Part shown: positions 23,898 through 29,774 of the stretch, piece by piece
Numbering within the stretch: the first letter of the stretch is position 1
Layout: every line of letters starts with the position of its first letter
From: Vicinamibacteria bacterium
GTDB taxonomy: Bacteria; Acidobacteriota; Vicinamibacteria; Fen-336
DNA length: 47,905 nt
Assembly (NCBI GenBank): GCA_016934575.1
Contig: JAFGSN010000017.1
Location: 1 to 47,905 of the forward strand
Reading direction: 5' to 3'
Translations under genes and position numbers: made by a program
Notes under the pieces: model-generated
What the model saw: only the letters and a program-made list of their open reading frames with translations
What the model was told of the DNA's origin: nothing
The model's database searches: none

Positions 23898-25379
23898 CTA
23901 TCGCGACCGGCGCGCGGCGGTCATCTCGAGCGCGTTCAGCTCGCGGCGCGCGTCATCATGGGCGGGATGGGCCCCGATAACGGCCTTGAGCTGAACGATC
24001 GCGCGCGCGACAAGGCCCAGTTTCTTGTAGTAGAGCGCCAACCGGAATCGGAGATCGACGTCCTTGGGGTTGAGCTCGAGCGCCGTTATGAAGTGCCGCT
24101 CGGCCCGGCGCGCCAGCGTCGGATGTTGCGCTAGAGTCAGGGCCAGGAGCCGCCGGCAGGTATTGTCCCCAGGGTCGCTGTCGACGCCCTCCAGCAGAAG
24201 CGTGGCGGCGCTTTCACGATCGCCGCGGTCGATCGCCGCCCTGGCCTCGCGCGCCAGACGCAAGGCGCGGTCGTGCGCCTCGGCCGTGACCTCTGAAAAA
24301 CCGGCGGCGGTTTTCTCGAGGGAGCGATCATAGGCGGCGCGCCGATTGTCGTCGGAAAGAACGAGGTAGGCTTCACGACGCCGCAAGCGCAGAGTGCCGA
24401 TGATCGAGCCGAGCTTGGGATCACCGGCGTAATCGTTCCACTCTTCGTCCTGTTCACGCGTGAGCCGTCGATAGACGGCGTCGATTTCCTCGCACGAAGC
24501 CCCGCGCGGGATCCCGAGCATGTCGTAGTGCGTGGCGCGCGGCAGCGCCTCGTATCGTTTGATAATCTGGGCGCGAACGTCGGGCTCCTCGACGCGCAAC
24601 CCGGGATGGGTGTCGGTCATCGCCAAGCGGAACATGCCCGTGTCTTCCTCGACGACGCCGAGATCTCGCGGAGCAGCGGACTCCAGAAGCTCGACGATCC
24701 CGCCCATGAGCAAGGCGCAGATCCCTTGCGTGAGCAGCGCGCGGGGCGCCGAACGAGCCAGAATGTCGGAGATGCGCATCTCCGCGGAAGCGTCTTGAAT
24801 GATGCTCCGTTCTACCGGCGAAAAGGCGATCCGCTTGACGTCGAAAGGAGGCTGCGCCGTCACGCGCAAACGCCGCTCCGAATCGCCGAGATGCCGCTCC
24901 ATGCGTTCGGCGTCCGGAAAGACGCGCATGCCCTCGAGCAGCAACCTGCGCAAGGAGATATCGACCTGCAAATCCGCCGGGATGGGTTCCGGCGATTCCT
25001 CGAAACGGAGCGTGCCGCGCGTCCATAGAAACAGAGAGAGCACGATTTTCTGGACCTGGCGCGCCACGAGCGCGCCCAGCTCTTCTTCGTCGACCAGTCC
25101 GGCGTCGACGAGAGTCTCGCCCAGGCGTTGCTGGCGCTCAAGGCTGTGGCGATATATCGCGGCAAACTCGCTTCTTGAGATGCGGCCGAGCCGGATGAGC
25201 TGCTCTCCGAGTCGATCGTTCTCATCGCTCGAGGCGGCGAACACGATACGGCCCGCTTTCAGGAAAAGGCGCTTGGCAATGCCCGCTGAAGACGCCTCGA
25301 GGATGCCGCTGGCTTGAACGCGGTGCAGCGCAAGAATCTCCTCGGCGAGAAGGACGTGAGACAGGTCTTTTGTGGACAC
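23898..25379 (-). CDS. DUF4388-like/degenerate J-domain/TPR protein
   Basis: 493 aa. Residues about 5-150 resemble the DUF4388 (PATAN-like) domain: LHRVQASGILEASSAG, then RLFLKAGRIVFAASSDENDRLGEQL, followed by a GspE_N-like helical stretch. About 275-350 is a J-domain-like segment (THYDMLGIPRGASCEEIDAVY, then EAYLVLSDDNRRAAYDRSLE) that lacks the HPD tripeptide needed to stimulate Hsp70. About 365-485 is a TPR-type helical repeat region (LNPKDVDLRFRLALYYKKLG). This combination is typical of delta-proteobacterial and acidobacterial regulatory or scaffold proteins. The start is GTG 25379; a -10 (TAATAT) ends 5 bases before it, so the mRNA is probably leaderless. Confidence 0.85.
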   Translation of the reverse strand: MSTKDLSHVLLAEEILALHRVQASGILEASSAGIAKRLFLKAGRIVFAASSDENDRLGEQLIRLGRISRSEFAAIYRHSLERQQRLGETLVDAGLVDEEELGALVARQVQKIVLSLFLWTRGTLRFEESPEPIPADLQVDISLRRLLLEGMRVFPDAERMERHLGDSERRLRVTAQPPFDVKRIAFSPVERSIIQDASAEMRISDILARSAPRALLTQGICALLMGGIVELLESAAPRDLGVVEEDTGMFRLAMTDTHPGLRVEEPDVRAQIIKRYEALPRATHYDMLGIPRGASCEEIDAVYRRLTREQDEEWNDYAGDPKLGSIIGTLRLRRREAYLVLSDDNRRAAYDRSLEKTAAGFSEVTAEAHDRALRLAREARAAIDRGDRESAATLLLEGVDSDPGDNTCRRLLALTLAQHPTLARRAERHFITALELNPKDVDLRFRLALYYKKLGLVARAIVQLKAVIGAHPAHDDARRELNALEMTAARRSR

Positions 25380-28173: not shown

Positions 28174-29034
28174 ATGGCGCGATTGCTGGCGATCGGTCAT
28201 GTGACCCGGGACCTCCTCGGTCATCGCGAATCATTGGGAGGCTCCGCCGCCTACGCGGCCGCCTGCGCGCACAAGCTTGGCTGGCAGACGGCCGTCCTGA
28301 CCTCCGCCGGACCGGATTTCGATCCGAGCGCCGACCTTCCCGGCGTCACGGTCTTTCGCCGCCTGTCGCCTTGCACGACGAGATTCAAGAACGTCTACGA
28401 CGAGAACGGCTGCCGGCGTCAAGTCCTCCTCGCGCGCGCGGAGGACATCTGCATCGATCCGCTTCCCGATGAATGGCGCGATCCGGACGTTCTGCTGCTC
28501 TGTCCCGTCGCCTCGGAAATAGCCGGGGCTTTCACGCGCTCATTCGCCGCGGCCGTCGTGGGCGCAACGGGCCAGGGATGGTTGCGTGGATTCGCACCCG
28601 ACGGCCTCGTACGACGTCTTGATTTCATCCATTCCGCCGAATGCCTGGAAGGCGTCCATGCTCTGTTTCTTTCCCACGAAGATCTTCCGGATGCCGATAC
28701 GCGCGCCGCGCTTTTCCTGAAATTTGCTCCCATCGTGATTCTGACGCGGGGGTGGAAGGGTCTCTCGCTCTTGACGCGCGATGCGGCGCATATATTGCCC
28801 GCCCTCCCACGTAGCGAAGTCGATCCGACCGGAGCCGGGGATGTCTTTGCCGCGGCCTTTCTCGTCGGATACCATGAAACAGGCGATCTCCTCGAAGCGG
28901 CCGCTTTCGGCGCCTGCGCCGCCTCGTGCGTGGTCGAGGGCTGGGGATTGTCGGCGATCGGCGCTCGCGCCGAGATCGAACGGCGCATGAAGCAGTATGC
29001 GCGATTGATCGAAGAGGGAGACTGGGAGGAGTAA
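28174..29034 (+). CDS. PfkB-family sugar/nucleoside kinase
   Basis: A 286-aa ribokinase-like kinase. It has N-terminal GHVTRDLLG and the glycine pair LGGSAAYAAACAHKLGWQ, and the C-terminal PfkB signature DPTGAGDVFAAAF (217-229) with the anion hole GAG and catalytic Asp223. ATG 28174 lies 3 bases after the purF stop (a TTG at 28171 is an alternative), so it is co-transcribed with purF. The substrate is not evident. Position after purF and a short PfkB fold point to a nucleoside or sugar-nucleoside kinase, but that is inference. Confidence 0.88.
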   Translation: MARLLAIGHVTRDLLGHRESLGGSAAYAAACAHKLGWQTAVLTSAGPDFDPSADLPGVTVFRRLSPCTTRFKNVYDENGCRRQVLLARAEDICIDPLPDEWRDPDVLLLCPVASEIAGAFTRSFAAAVVGATGQGWLRGFAPDGLVRRLDFIHSAECLEGVHALFLSHEDLPDADTRAALFLKFAPIVILTRGWKGLSLLTRDAAHILPALPRSEVDPTGAGDVFAAAFLVGYHETGDLLEAAAFGACAASCVVEGWGLSAIGARAEIERRMKQYARLIEEGDWEE

Positions 29035-29042
29035 GCGGCGAT

Positions 29043-29774
29043 ATGAACCCGAACGCCGATCCGCGCCAGTCTCGCAGAAGACGCGTTCTCGTCGTCGAGG
29101 ACGAGGAGGAAGTCAGGATTCTCGTCGGTAGAATTCTCCAGTCGGCCGGTCACATCGTCGACATGGTCTCGGAAGGAGCCGCGGCCCTTCGAAGAATCAA
29201 GACCGAGCCGCCTGATCTCATCATTCTCGACATCATGATGCCCGGCATCGACGGCTGGACGATTCTCGAACAACTGCGAAAGATGTCCGGCGCCCCGCCG
29301 ATCGTTGTGCTCACGGGCCTTGATGACGCCGACAGCTTTCGAAAAGGCATCGGCGGCGGCGGAACGGCGTACGTGATCAAACCCTTTCGTTTTCATGAGC
29401 TTCTGGCAACCTGTCAGCGCGCGCTCCTGACCGCGAGTCAATCGCGCGAGGTCGTGGTCGAAAGGCGGCGCCAGACGCGCAGGATGCTGATCGTCGAGGT
29501 CAGCGTCCTTTCGCGAGAAAACCGCCCCTTCGCGCTGGGCGAGCTGCTCAACCTCAGCTTGAACGGCGCGTGCATCGAGCTCGGCATACCTCTCGACGTC
29601 GGTGAGCGAGTTCGCGTGTCTTTCAACATCCCGCGCGGCCAAAGCCCGCATCTAGAGGGCGACGTGCGCTGGCGTCGCGAAACGGCGCGCGGCGTCATGC
29701 ACGGCCTTGCTTTCGTGCACGTCTCTCCACAGGACGGAGAGTATCTGAGGGAGCTGCTGCCCGCACGCGAGTGA
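29043..29774 (+). CDS. Response regulator receiver-PilZ fusion
   Basis: 243 aa. Residues 14-130 are a receiver domain with acidic pocket Glu19-Asp20, phospho-acceptor Asp63 (LIILDIMMPGIDG), switch Thr91 (VVLTGLDD) and Lys113 (VIKPFRF). Residues about 140-240 are a PilZ c-di-GMP-binding domain with an Arg-rich entry (ERRRQTRRM) and the NLSLNG motif ([D/N]xSxxG). It should therefore combine a phosphorelay input with c-di-GMP sensing. No histidine kinase is adjacent. The stop TGA lies just upstream of ftsE, with a possible overlapping GTG. Confidence 0.88.
   Translation: MNPNADPRQSRRRRVLVVEDEEEVRILVGRILQSAGHIVDMVSEGAAALRRIKTEPPDLIILDIMMPGIDGWTILEQLRKMSGAPPIVVLTGLDDADSFRKGIGGGGTAYVIKPFRFHELLATCQRALLTASQSREVVVERRRQTRRMLIVEVSVLSRENRPFALGELLNLSLNGACIELGIPLDVGERVRVSFNIPRGQSPHLEGDVRWRRETARGVMHGLAFVHVSPQDGEYLRELLPARE

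What the first reader, a model, noticed from the sequence alone, without database searches (positions are those of the whole stretch)
23898..25379. DUF4388-like + HPD-less J-domain + TPR in one protein
The J-like segment keeps the YDMLGIPRGAS and AYLVLSDDNRRAAYD ends but lacks HPD, so it cannot stimulate Hsp70 in the known way. Coupled with a DUF4388-like domain and TPRs, it looks like a scaffold with a repurposed J-fold.
Basis: partly seen in the sequence, partly recalled or inferred. Interest (0 to 1): 0.5.

Follow-up and report, generated by a model that had tools for sequence, protein, structure and literature searches.

The report
Bacterial adaptor with disarmed J domain
An Acidobacteriota genome encodes an adaptor-like protein whose chaperone-partner (J) domain keeps its predicted shape but has lost the three residues needed to switch on Hsp70; relatives show the loss is old and repeated, giving a natural series for asking what disarmed J domains are for.

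Summary
The gene (window 23898-25379, minus strand, 493 aa) has a true DUF4388 domain, a J segment without HPD, and TPRs. Pfam finds DnaJ above its cut-off in two halves, the HPD part missing. A model built from HPD-less rows is confident (pLDDT 94) and its ten best PDB matches are DnaJ/Hsp40 chains. The HPD column (here DEE) lies inside a lengthened helix II, whose basic Hsp70-facing charge is lost too.

It is not a mutant copy: it lies in a supported clade of 21 family members without HPD, and its 53%-identical ortholog also lacks HPD. The same genome holds HPD-bearing paralogs. HPD was lost at least twice in the family (three times on the best tree). Another HPD-less DUF4388-J protein is found in 29 of 35 genomes of a Myxococcota order. 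The segment evolves under constraint, yet two sister orthologs replaced it by a linker, and in part of the clade its J origin is unproven.

Best reading: a probably c-di-GMP-responsive adaptor whose pseudo-J serves Hsp70-independent docking or spacing. Partner, ligand and function are untested. A new variant of a known kind.

The parts
23898..25379 (-). Whole gene: DUF4388(MshEN-like insert) - pseudo-J - TPR protein, 493 aa, GTG start
24921..25367 (-). DUF4388 domain, residues 5-153
   Evidence: Pfam PF14332 65.4 bits, cut-off 25; place G000:C85:24921-25367
25056..25214 (-). MshEN-type c-di-GMP-binding-like four-helix insert in DUF4388, residues 56-108; motif 2 (85-108) near-canonical, motif 1 (56-79) lacks its Gln
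   Evidence: NCBIfam NF053729 29 bits, below its cut-off of 38, matched at E up to 0.01 in 48 of 48 scanned members; profile hits MshE 5htl E 8.2e-14 and PilF 6f8l E 3.6e-27; four helices 57-63, 69-81, 86-92, 98-116
24324..24533 (-). J fold without HPD (pseudo-J), residues 283-352
   Evidence: Pfam DnaJ in two halves; AF2 model pLDDT 94; Foldseek and VIA-align J-domain matches
24441..24449 (-). HPD-equivalent triple D311-E312-E313, inside the lengthened helix II of the models
23928..24257 (-). C-terminal TPR region, residues 375-484
   Evidence: Pfam TPR models; helix pairs in the model; Foldseek TPR matches

Best explanation
The protein is an adaptor of a lineage-expanded DUF4388-J-TPR family. 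Its N-terminal DUF4388 carries an MshEN-type bundle that probably senses c-di-GMP (inferred from homology), its TPRs probably bind a partner (inferred), and between them sits a J domain that has been disarmed: the fold is kept (predicted with high confidence), while the HPD loop was absorbed into a longer helix II and the basic Hsp70-docking charge was lost (alignment and model). So it should not activate DnaK (inferred); instead the pseudo-J serves as an Hsp70-independent docking or rigid spacing module under purifying selection (inferred). The loss of HPD is shared by the whole clade and happened again elsewhere in the family (shown on the tree).
For: J fold: model from 18 rows without HPD, pLDDT 94; the ten best Foldseek rows are DnaJ/Hsp40 chains with probability 1.00; VIA-align Z up to 10.2, rmsd 1.9 over 73 residues; the profile of these 18 rows finds J domains in the PDB at 4.1e-7. 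Clade-wide HPD absence: 21 rows, 95/89 support, on a tree built without the J columns. Net charge of the 14 residues before the HPD column +2.5 in 22 HPD rows against -0.9 in 26 rows without HPD; -0.4 in 16 if the ten class d rows are left out (my sum). Segment as conserved as its neighbours between P0001 and its ortholog (52% against 58% DUF4388 and 56% TPR) and in class d (67% against 68% and 66%), with dN below dS in six of six pairs without HPD. MshEN homology; 12 GGDEF matches in the same genome. HPD-less DUF4388-J in Myxococcota: 29 of 29 matched proteins, from 29 of 35 genomes.
Against: Two sister orthologs have a linker in place of the J segment, so its role is dispensable in part of the group. 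In class c it is less conserved (48%) than DUF4388 (58%) and TPR (66%). In class d it is not recognisable as J: no Pfam DnaJ match in 2 of 2 tested, no J domain among the PDB hits of a class d profile, and only 46% probability against the J set; four of the six dN/dS pairs are class d, one of the other two (P0001 with its ortholog) is near dS saturation, and its counterpart L042/L060 matches DnaJ only weakly. No Foldseek match reached E 0.001, and VIA-align's own note says that Z under about 13 can be mere arrangement in helical bundles. Charges overlap: rows without HPD range from -3 to +2. MshEN motif 1 lacks its Gln in 51 of 51 rows and the NCBIfam match is below cut-off, so ligand binding may be weak or lost. 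No conserved gene neighbourhood names a partner.
Confidence: 0.55

Rival explanations
1. Relict on its way out: after HPD loss the J segment is only a folded spacer between DUF4388 and TPR, kept for stability and replaceable by any linker.
For: Sister orthologs L048 and L049 have a short acidic, Pro-rich linker in place of J; in class c and d rows the C-terminal end of J is lost, and in class d the segment is no longer recognisable as J.
Against: dN below dS in the segment in six of six pairs without HPD; segment as conserved as the other domains in P0001/L040 and class d; 29 of 29 Myxococcota proteins keep the J-like segment without HPD.
Confidence: 0.25
2. Pam16-like regulator: the pseudo-J pairs with the HPD-bearing J of a DUF4388-J-TPR paralog (or of DnaJ) and controls when it activates Hsp70.
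For: Two HPD-bearing DUF4388-J-TPR paralogs are in the same genome; yeast Pam16 has DKE in place of HPD and pairs with Pam18 (passages of PMC13254874).
Against: DUF4388-J frames with a strong DnaJ match also occur in the two genomes whose ortholog has lost the J segment (G006, G012; HPD itself was not read there), so co-occurrence does not discriminate; no interaction data.
Confidence: 0.13
3. It still works with Hsp70 through a non-canonical face, without HPD.
For: A designed J analogue without HPD is reported to stimulate Hsc70 (passage of PMC13254874).
Against: Both known contact features, HPD and basic helix II, are lost together.
Confidence: 0.05
4. Assembly error or a lone broken copy.
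For: The source is a draft genome of 247 contigs.
Against: An ortholog in another genus (G007) also lacks HPD and is 53-54% identical over the whole length; the frame is open with no stop; HPD is absent from the whole clade.
Confidence: 0.01

Closest known systems
Pseudo-J / type IV J-domain proteins (Pam16, TbPam18, DnaJB13, plasmodial type IV JDPs)
   Same: Recognisable J fold with HPD replaced (DEE here; DKE in yeast Pam16, passage; HSD in TbPam18, passage).
   Different: The type IV examples in the passages read are eukaryotic (E. coli DjlB and DjlC, with HPE, are given there as a tolerated replacement); here a bacterial multi-domain protein with DUF4388/MshEN and TPRs, the HPD loop absorbed into helix II in the model, and repeated losses inside one family.
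HPD-bearing DUF4388-J-TPR paralogs (same genome C80 and C199; L061, L063, L068 and others)
   Same: Same domain order and family.
   Different: They keep HPD and a basic helix II (+2 or more in 20 of 22 rows).
MshEN c-di-GMP receptors (MshE, PilF/PilB N-terminal domains)
   Same: Tandem RLG motifs, five-residue spacer in this protein, four helices; profile match E 8.2e-14 to MshE 5htl.
   Different: Inserted in DUF4388 rather than in a traffic ATPase; motif 1 lacks its Gln in all 51 rows.
PATAN / DUF4388 regulators (PixE, LsiR; Myxococcus PATAN proteins)
   Same: A domain with a helical insertion. That DUF4388 and PATAN are the same domain is recalled, not tested.
   Different: The cyanobacterial ones in the passages read are joined to receiver domains; here J and TPR.

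Membership tests
Canonical J-domain protein (Hsp70 co-chaperone) | J fold | tested here: met
   (prediction and sequence, no experiment)
Canonical J-domain protein (Hsp70 co-chaperone) | HPD motif in the helix II-III loop | tested here: not met
   DEE at 311-313, inside a helix in both models
Canonical J-domain protein (Hsp70 co-chaperone) | Basic helix II | tested here: not met
   net charge -1 over the 14 residues before the HPD column, against a mean of +2.5 (range 0 to +4) in 22 HPD rows
Canonical J-domain protein (Hsp70 co-chaperone) | Stimulates Hsp70 ATPase | not testable with these tools
   needs a bench assay
Type IV / pseudo-J protein | Recognisable J domain with non-conservative replacement of HPD | tested here: met
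   Definition from passages of PMC13254874
Pam16-like regulator | Stable heterodimer with an HPD J domain | not testable with these tools
   co-occurrence was examined and does not discriminate
DUF4388 (PF14332) | Score over the curated cut-off | tested here: met
   65.4 against 25 bits
MshEN c-di-GMP receptor | Homology over the 53-residue tandem-motif bundle | tested here: met
MshEN c-di-GMP receptor | All ligand-contact residues in both motifs | tested here: not met
   motif 1 Gln24 is absent in 51 of 51 rows; motif 2 Gln is present in 46 of 51, P0001 included
MshEN c-di-GMP receptor | NCBIfam NF053729 curated cut-off | tested here: not met
   29 against 38 bits
MshEN c-di-GMP receptor | Binds c-di-GMP | not testable with these tools
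   needs a binding assay
TPR protein | TPR repeats over cut-off | tested here: met
   TPR_19 25.9 against 25 bits; Foldseek TPR hits

The most novel reading that the evidence does not exclude
A bacterial counterpart of the Pam16-Pam18 pair under second-messenger control: c-di-GMP binding to the DUF4388/MshEN head of the disarmed protein decides whether its pseudo-J captures the HPD-bearing J of its paralogs, gating DnaK activity at sites chosen by the TPRs. The disarming arose repeatedly because the paralog family kept producing inhibitor or partner subunits from active ones.
Probability: 0.09. Interest if true: 0.8.

Novelty: new variant of a known kind. Interest (0 to 1): 0.5.

Why it matters
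A 2026 review of J-domain proteins (PMC13254874, passages) says it remains enigmatic whether departures from HPD are accidents of evolution or selected for. This family offers a natural series on one scaffold, partly in one genome: HPD-bearing J, disarmed but folded J, segments at the J position that are hardly or no longer recognisable as J, and J replaced by a linker, with repeated losses and constraint on the segment after the loss. The homology of the DUF4388 insertion with the MshEN bundle also suggests a ligand for a domain of unknown function.

Tried and rejected
A lone mutant or assembly artefact was rejected because the ortholog and the whole clade lack HPD. One single loss for all rows without HPD was rejected by the AU test (p 1.55e-110). 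A single origin for the core clade plus group B (L062, L082, L087, L090) was not rejected (p 0.122), so only two losses are firm and three is the best tree; the core, B and C groups were named after the first tree was seen, which the test does not allow for. A conserved operon partner was sought and not found: in the 8.1 kb fetched around the G007 ortholog (its contig ends just beyond the gene) no neighbour has a match near the gene in the window, and the two J-less orthologs share a sulfatase and a radical SAM/SPASM gene with each other, with no match in the window. Co-occurrence of DUF4388-J paralogs did not help to choose between readings. The whole-model Foldseek search was dominated by TPRs; no row shown matches the DUF4388 core; the PDB profile search of residues 1-239 gave MshEN-type matches and four weak chance ones.

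After a recheck I tested how far the J reading reaches: of ten J-position segments without HPD, Pfam DnaJ exceeds its cut-off in L062 and L090, is weak in L041, L047, L099 and L042 (18.8, 19.6, 20.4 and 12.5 bits) and absent in L044, L101, L027 and L043; a class d profile finds no J domain in the PDB and reaches 46% probability, E 2e-4, against the J set. I therefore lowered the best explanation from 0.58 to 0.55 and raised the relict reading from 0.22 to 0.25.

Rows dropped: from 51 family rows, 48 were used in alignment A5 (without L076, L108, L051) and 48 in the AU tests (without L076, L081, L108). L048, L049 and L108 have no full segment and were left out of the charge means. The first Myxococcota alignment used wrong domain hits for some rows and was redone. 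Class labels c and d and group labels B and C are my own.

Two genome-contig scans: the single-protein query found no relative; the A2 query found 13. Literature: searches (open-access PMC only; the lists shown) gave no title or abstract start that describes this architecture, an HPD-less J beside DUF4388, or DUF4388 as an MshEN carrier. Of the three papers holding both PATAN and MshEN I read passages of two, which do not link the two domains; the third I did not open.

Full report
What is there. The ORF lies on the minus strand at 23898-25379, 493 aa, GTG start. Pfam gives DUF4388 (65.4 bits, cut-off 25), DnaJ (29.5 bits, cut-off 27.8, E 8e-7) and TPRs. The J match comes in two halves, profile positions 1-26 and 48-63, with the HPD part missing. 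The triple aligned with HPD is DEE, residues 311-313.

Where it comes from. The window is contig C85 of a 3.98 Mb draft genome. Genomes that the tool puts in the same family hold contigs whose lengths equal those of deposited Acidobacteria and Vicinamibacteria MAG contigs, for example 26140, 45168 and 245065 bases. So the organism is an acidobacterium, probably of class Vicinamibacteria (inferred; NCBI lineage of that class).

Is it a J fold? A model of residues 265-361 made from 18 rows that all lack HPD has mean pLDDT 94, with one leading helix (266-277) and then helices at 284-288, 296-316, 321-342 and 344-358 (renumbered by +264). The HPD column falls inside the 296-316 helix, which leaves a short turn before the next one; the full-length model agrees (296-317 and 321-342; mean pLDDT 91, pTM 0.56, so domain placement is unsure). 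In Foldseek no match reached E 0.001 (best 0.0079), but the ten best rows are DnaJ/Hsp40 chains with probability 1.00, and target-normalised TM goes up to 0.82. Most of the other rows shown are titled as J-domain, DnaJ or Hsp40 proteins; some are titled only by the large complex they lie in. VIA-align gives Z 10.2 (rmsd 1.9, 73 residues) for a DnaJ-PKA chimera and 9.9 (rmsd 1.3, 65 residues) for C. elegans dnj-12; its note warns that helical models can reach such Z by arrangement alone. The sequence profile of the 18 rows also finds J domains in the PDB (E 4.1e-7).

Is HPD absent from the family? Not throughout, and that is the informative part. Fifty-one DUF4388-x-TPR proteins were aligned: 22 have HPD and 29 do not; three of the 29 (L048, L049, L108) have no recognisable J segment at all. 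On a tree built without the J columns, this protein groups with its ortholog L040 (99/95). Their sister pair is L048 and L049, with a linker in place of J (100/99 for the four). These four join 17 further rows without HPD; the 21-row clade has 95/89 support. L076, a long branch, joins it at 80/82. Two more groups without HPD lie among HPD-bearing rows: B (L062, L082, L087, L090) and C (L099, L100, L101). With the long or odd rows L076, L081 and L108 left out, the AU test rejects one clade of all 27 rows without HPD (p 1.55e-110), core plus C (p 1.3e-4) and B plus C (p 6e-69), but not core plus B (p 0.122). So at least two losses, three on the best tree. Since J domains have HPD ancestrally (established knowledge), and a full-length relative from outside the class (G306, kinship 'same phylum') has HPD, the changes are read as losses. 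Two HPD-bearing paralogs are in the same genome (C80 and C199).

How far does the J reading reach? For this protein it is firm. In the family Pfam DnaJ is matched at E up to 0.01 in 30 of 48 members. Ten segments without HPD were scanned alone: above cut-off in L062 and L090, weak in L041, L042, L047 and L099, none in L044, L101 and the class d rows L027 and L043. A class d profile finds no J domain in the PDB and compares with the J set at 46% probability, E 2e-4. Class d (which includes a second protein of the same genome, L027/L064 at C10) may be a J remnant or a replacement; only its position says J.

How disarmed? The 14 residues before the HPD column have a mean net charge of +2.5 (0 to +4) in 22 HPD rows and -0.9 (-3 to +2) in 26 rows without HPD; without the ten class d rows the latter is -0.4 in 16. 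This protein has -1 and its ortholog -3. Both known Hsp70 contact features are thus gone together here, while core positions stay (alignments A4 and A7).

Decay or use? Between this protein and L040 the J segment is 52% identical, DUF4388 58%, TPR 56%; in ten class d rows the segment is 67%, DUF4388 68%, TPR 66%; in four class c rows it lags (48% against 58% and 66%). Counting by Nei-Gojobori, dN is below dS in the segment in six of six pairs without HPD (ratios about 0.18 to 0.32, my division of the values); four of these pairs are class d, one row is used twice, and P0001/L040 is near saturation. In one pair (L065/L066) the segment is less constrained than TPR. This speaks for a maintained role; the linker in L048/L049 speaks against its being essential.

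The head. All 48 scanned members match the NCBI model for the MshE-related c-di-GMP motif at E up to 0.01 (this protein 29 bits, cut-off 38). A profile of residues 50-118 of 16 members finds PilF (3.6e-27), MshE 5htl (8.2e-14) and PilB in the PDB, with the next, unrelated match at 0.076. The motif of Wang et al. (PMC5013675; passages and section 6 read) is two 24-residue motifs with a five-residue spacer: motif 2 here (85-108) fits nearly fully and motif 1 (56-79) lacks its final Gln, as in 51 of 51 rows; motif 2 Gln is kept in 46 of 51. The genome has 12 GGDEF matches. c-di-GMP sensing is therefore likely but unproven.

How common? Of 193 genomes of the class, four carry this ortholog group at E below 1e-100, and G001 has a 102-residue C-terminal fragment at a contig end (57% identical). 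But the phenomenon is wider: a DUF4388 plus HPD-less J protein from a MAG of Myxococcota (L076; phylum label; Pfam DnaJ 18.5 bits, below cut-off) has a match at E up to 1e-20 in 29 of 35 genomes of its order, one each, and 29 of 29 lack HPD.

Context. The flanking genes on the same strand look like membrane proteins by sequence and have no Pfam match at 1e-5; next come a GATase (purF-like) gene, a PfkB gene and a REC-PilZ gene. No neighbourhood is shared with the G007 ortholog in the stretch fetched.

Comparison with the known. In the review PMC13254874 (passages) proteins with a recognisable J domain and a non-conservatively replaced HPD are called type IV or pseudo-JDPs, their relevance open. 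PMC11349236 (passages) reports trypanosome Pam16/18 with inactive J domains repurposed outside Hsp70. This protein meets that definition and fails the one for an active J protein. It is thus a new variant of a known kind: a bacterial pseudo-J in a DUF4388/MshEN-TPR adaptor, with repeated loss.

Noticed in passing
L076 and loci L140-L168: A DUF4388 plus HPD-less J protein, one match per genome, in 29 of 35 genomes of a Myxococcota order; the triple at the HPD column is AAD in 14 of 29.
   Followed up: partly
L008 565-2055 (G000:C225): One 497-aa frame joins a MinD/ParA-like ATPase part, a DnaJ match (28.8 bits, cut-off 27.8) without HPD and a helix-turn-helix (HTH_25).
   Followed up: no
window 28926-29774 (+): Receiver-PilZ protein two genes after the purF-like gene: another possible c-di-GMP link near the gene.
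   Followed up: no
L102 3998-6160 (G007:C3): A 720-aa protein beside the G007 ortholog joins a protein kinase domain and a C-terminal TonB domain.
   Followed up: no
L103 5321-6550 and L104 5496-6746: The two J-less orthologs each follow a sulfatase gene on the same strand and lie next to a radical SAM/SPASM gene.
   Followed up: partly
G000:C80:2127-7179: The HPD-bearing paralog lies a few kb from a GGDEF gene and a 335-aa DUF4388 frame.
   Followed up: no
G000:C10:36364-37197 (L027/L064): A second DUF4388-x-TPR protein of the genome has a well conserved class d segment at the J position that no Pfam model explains.
   Followed up: partly
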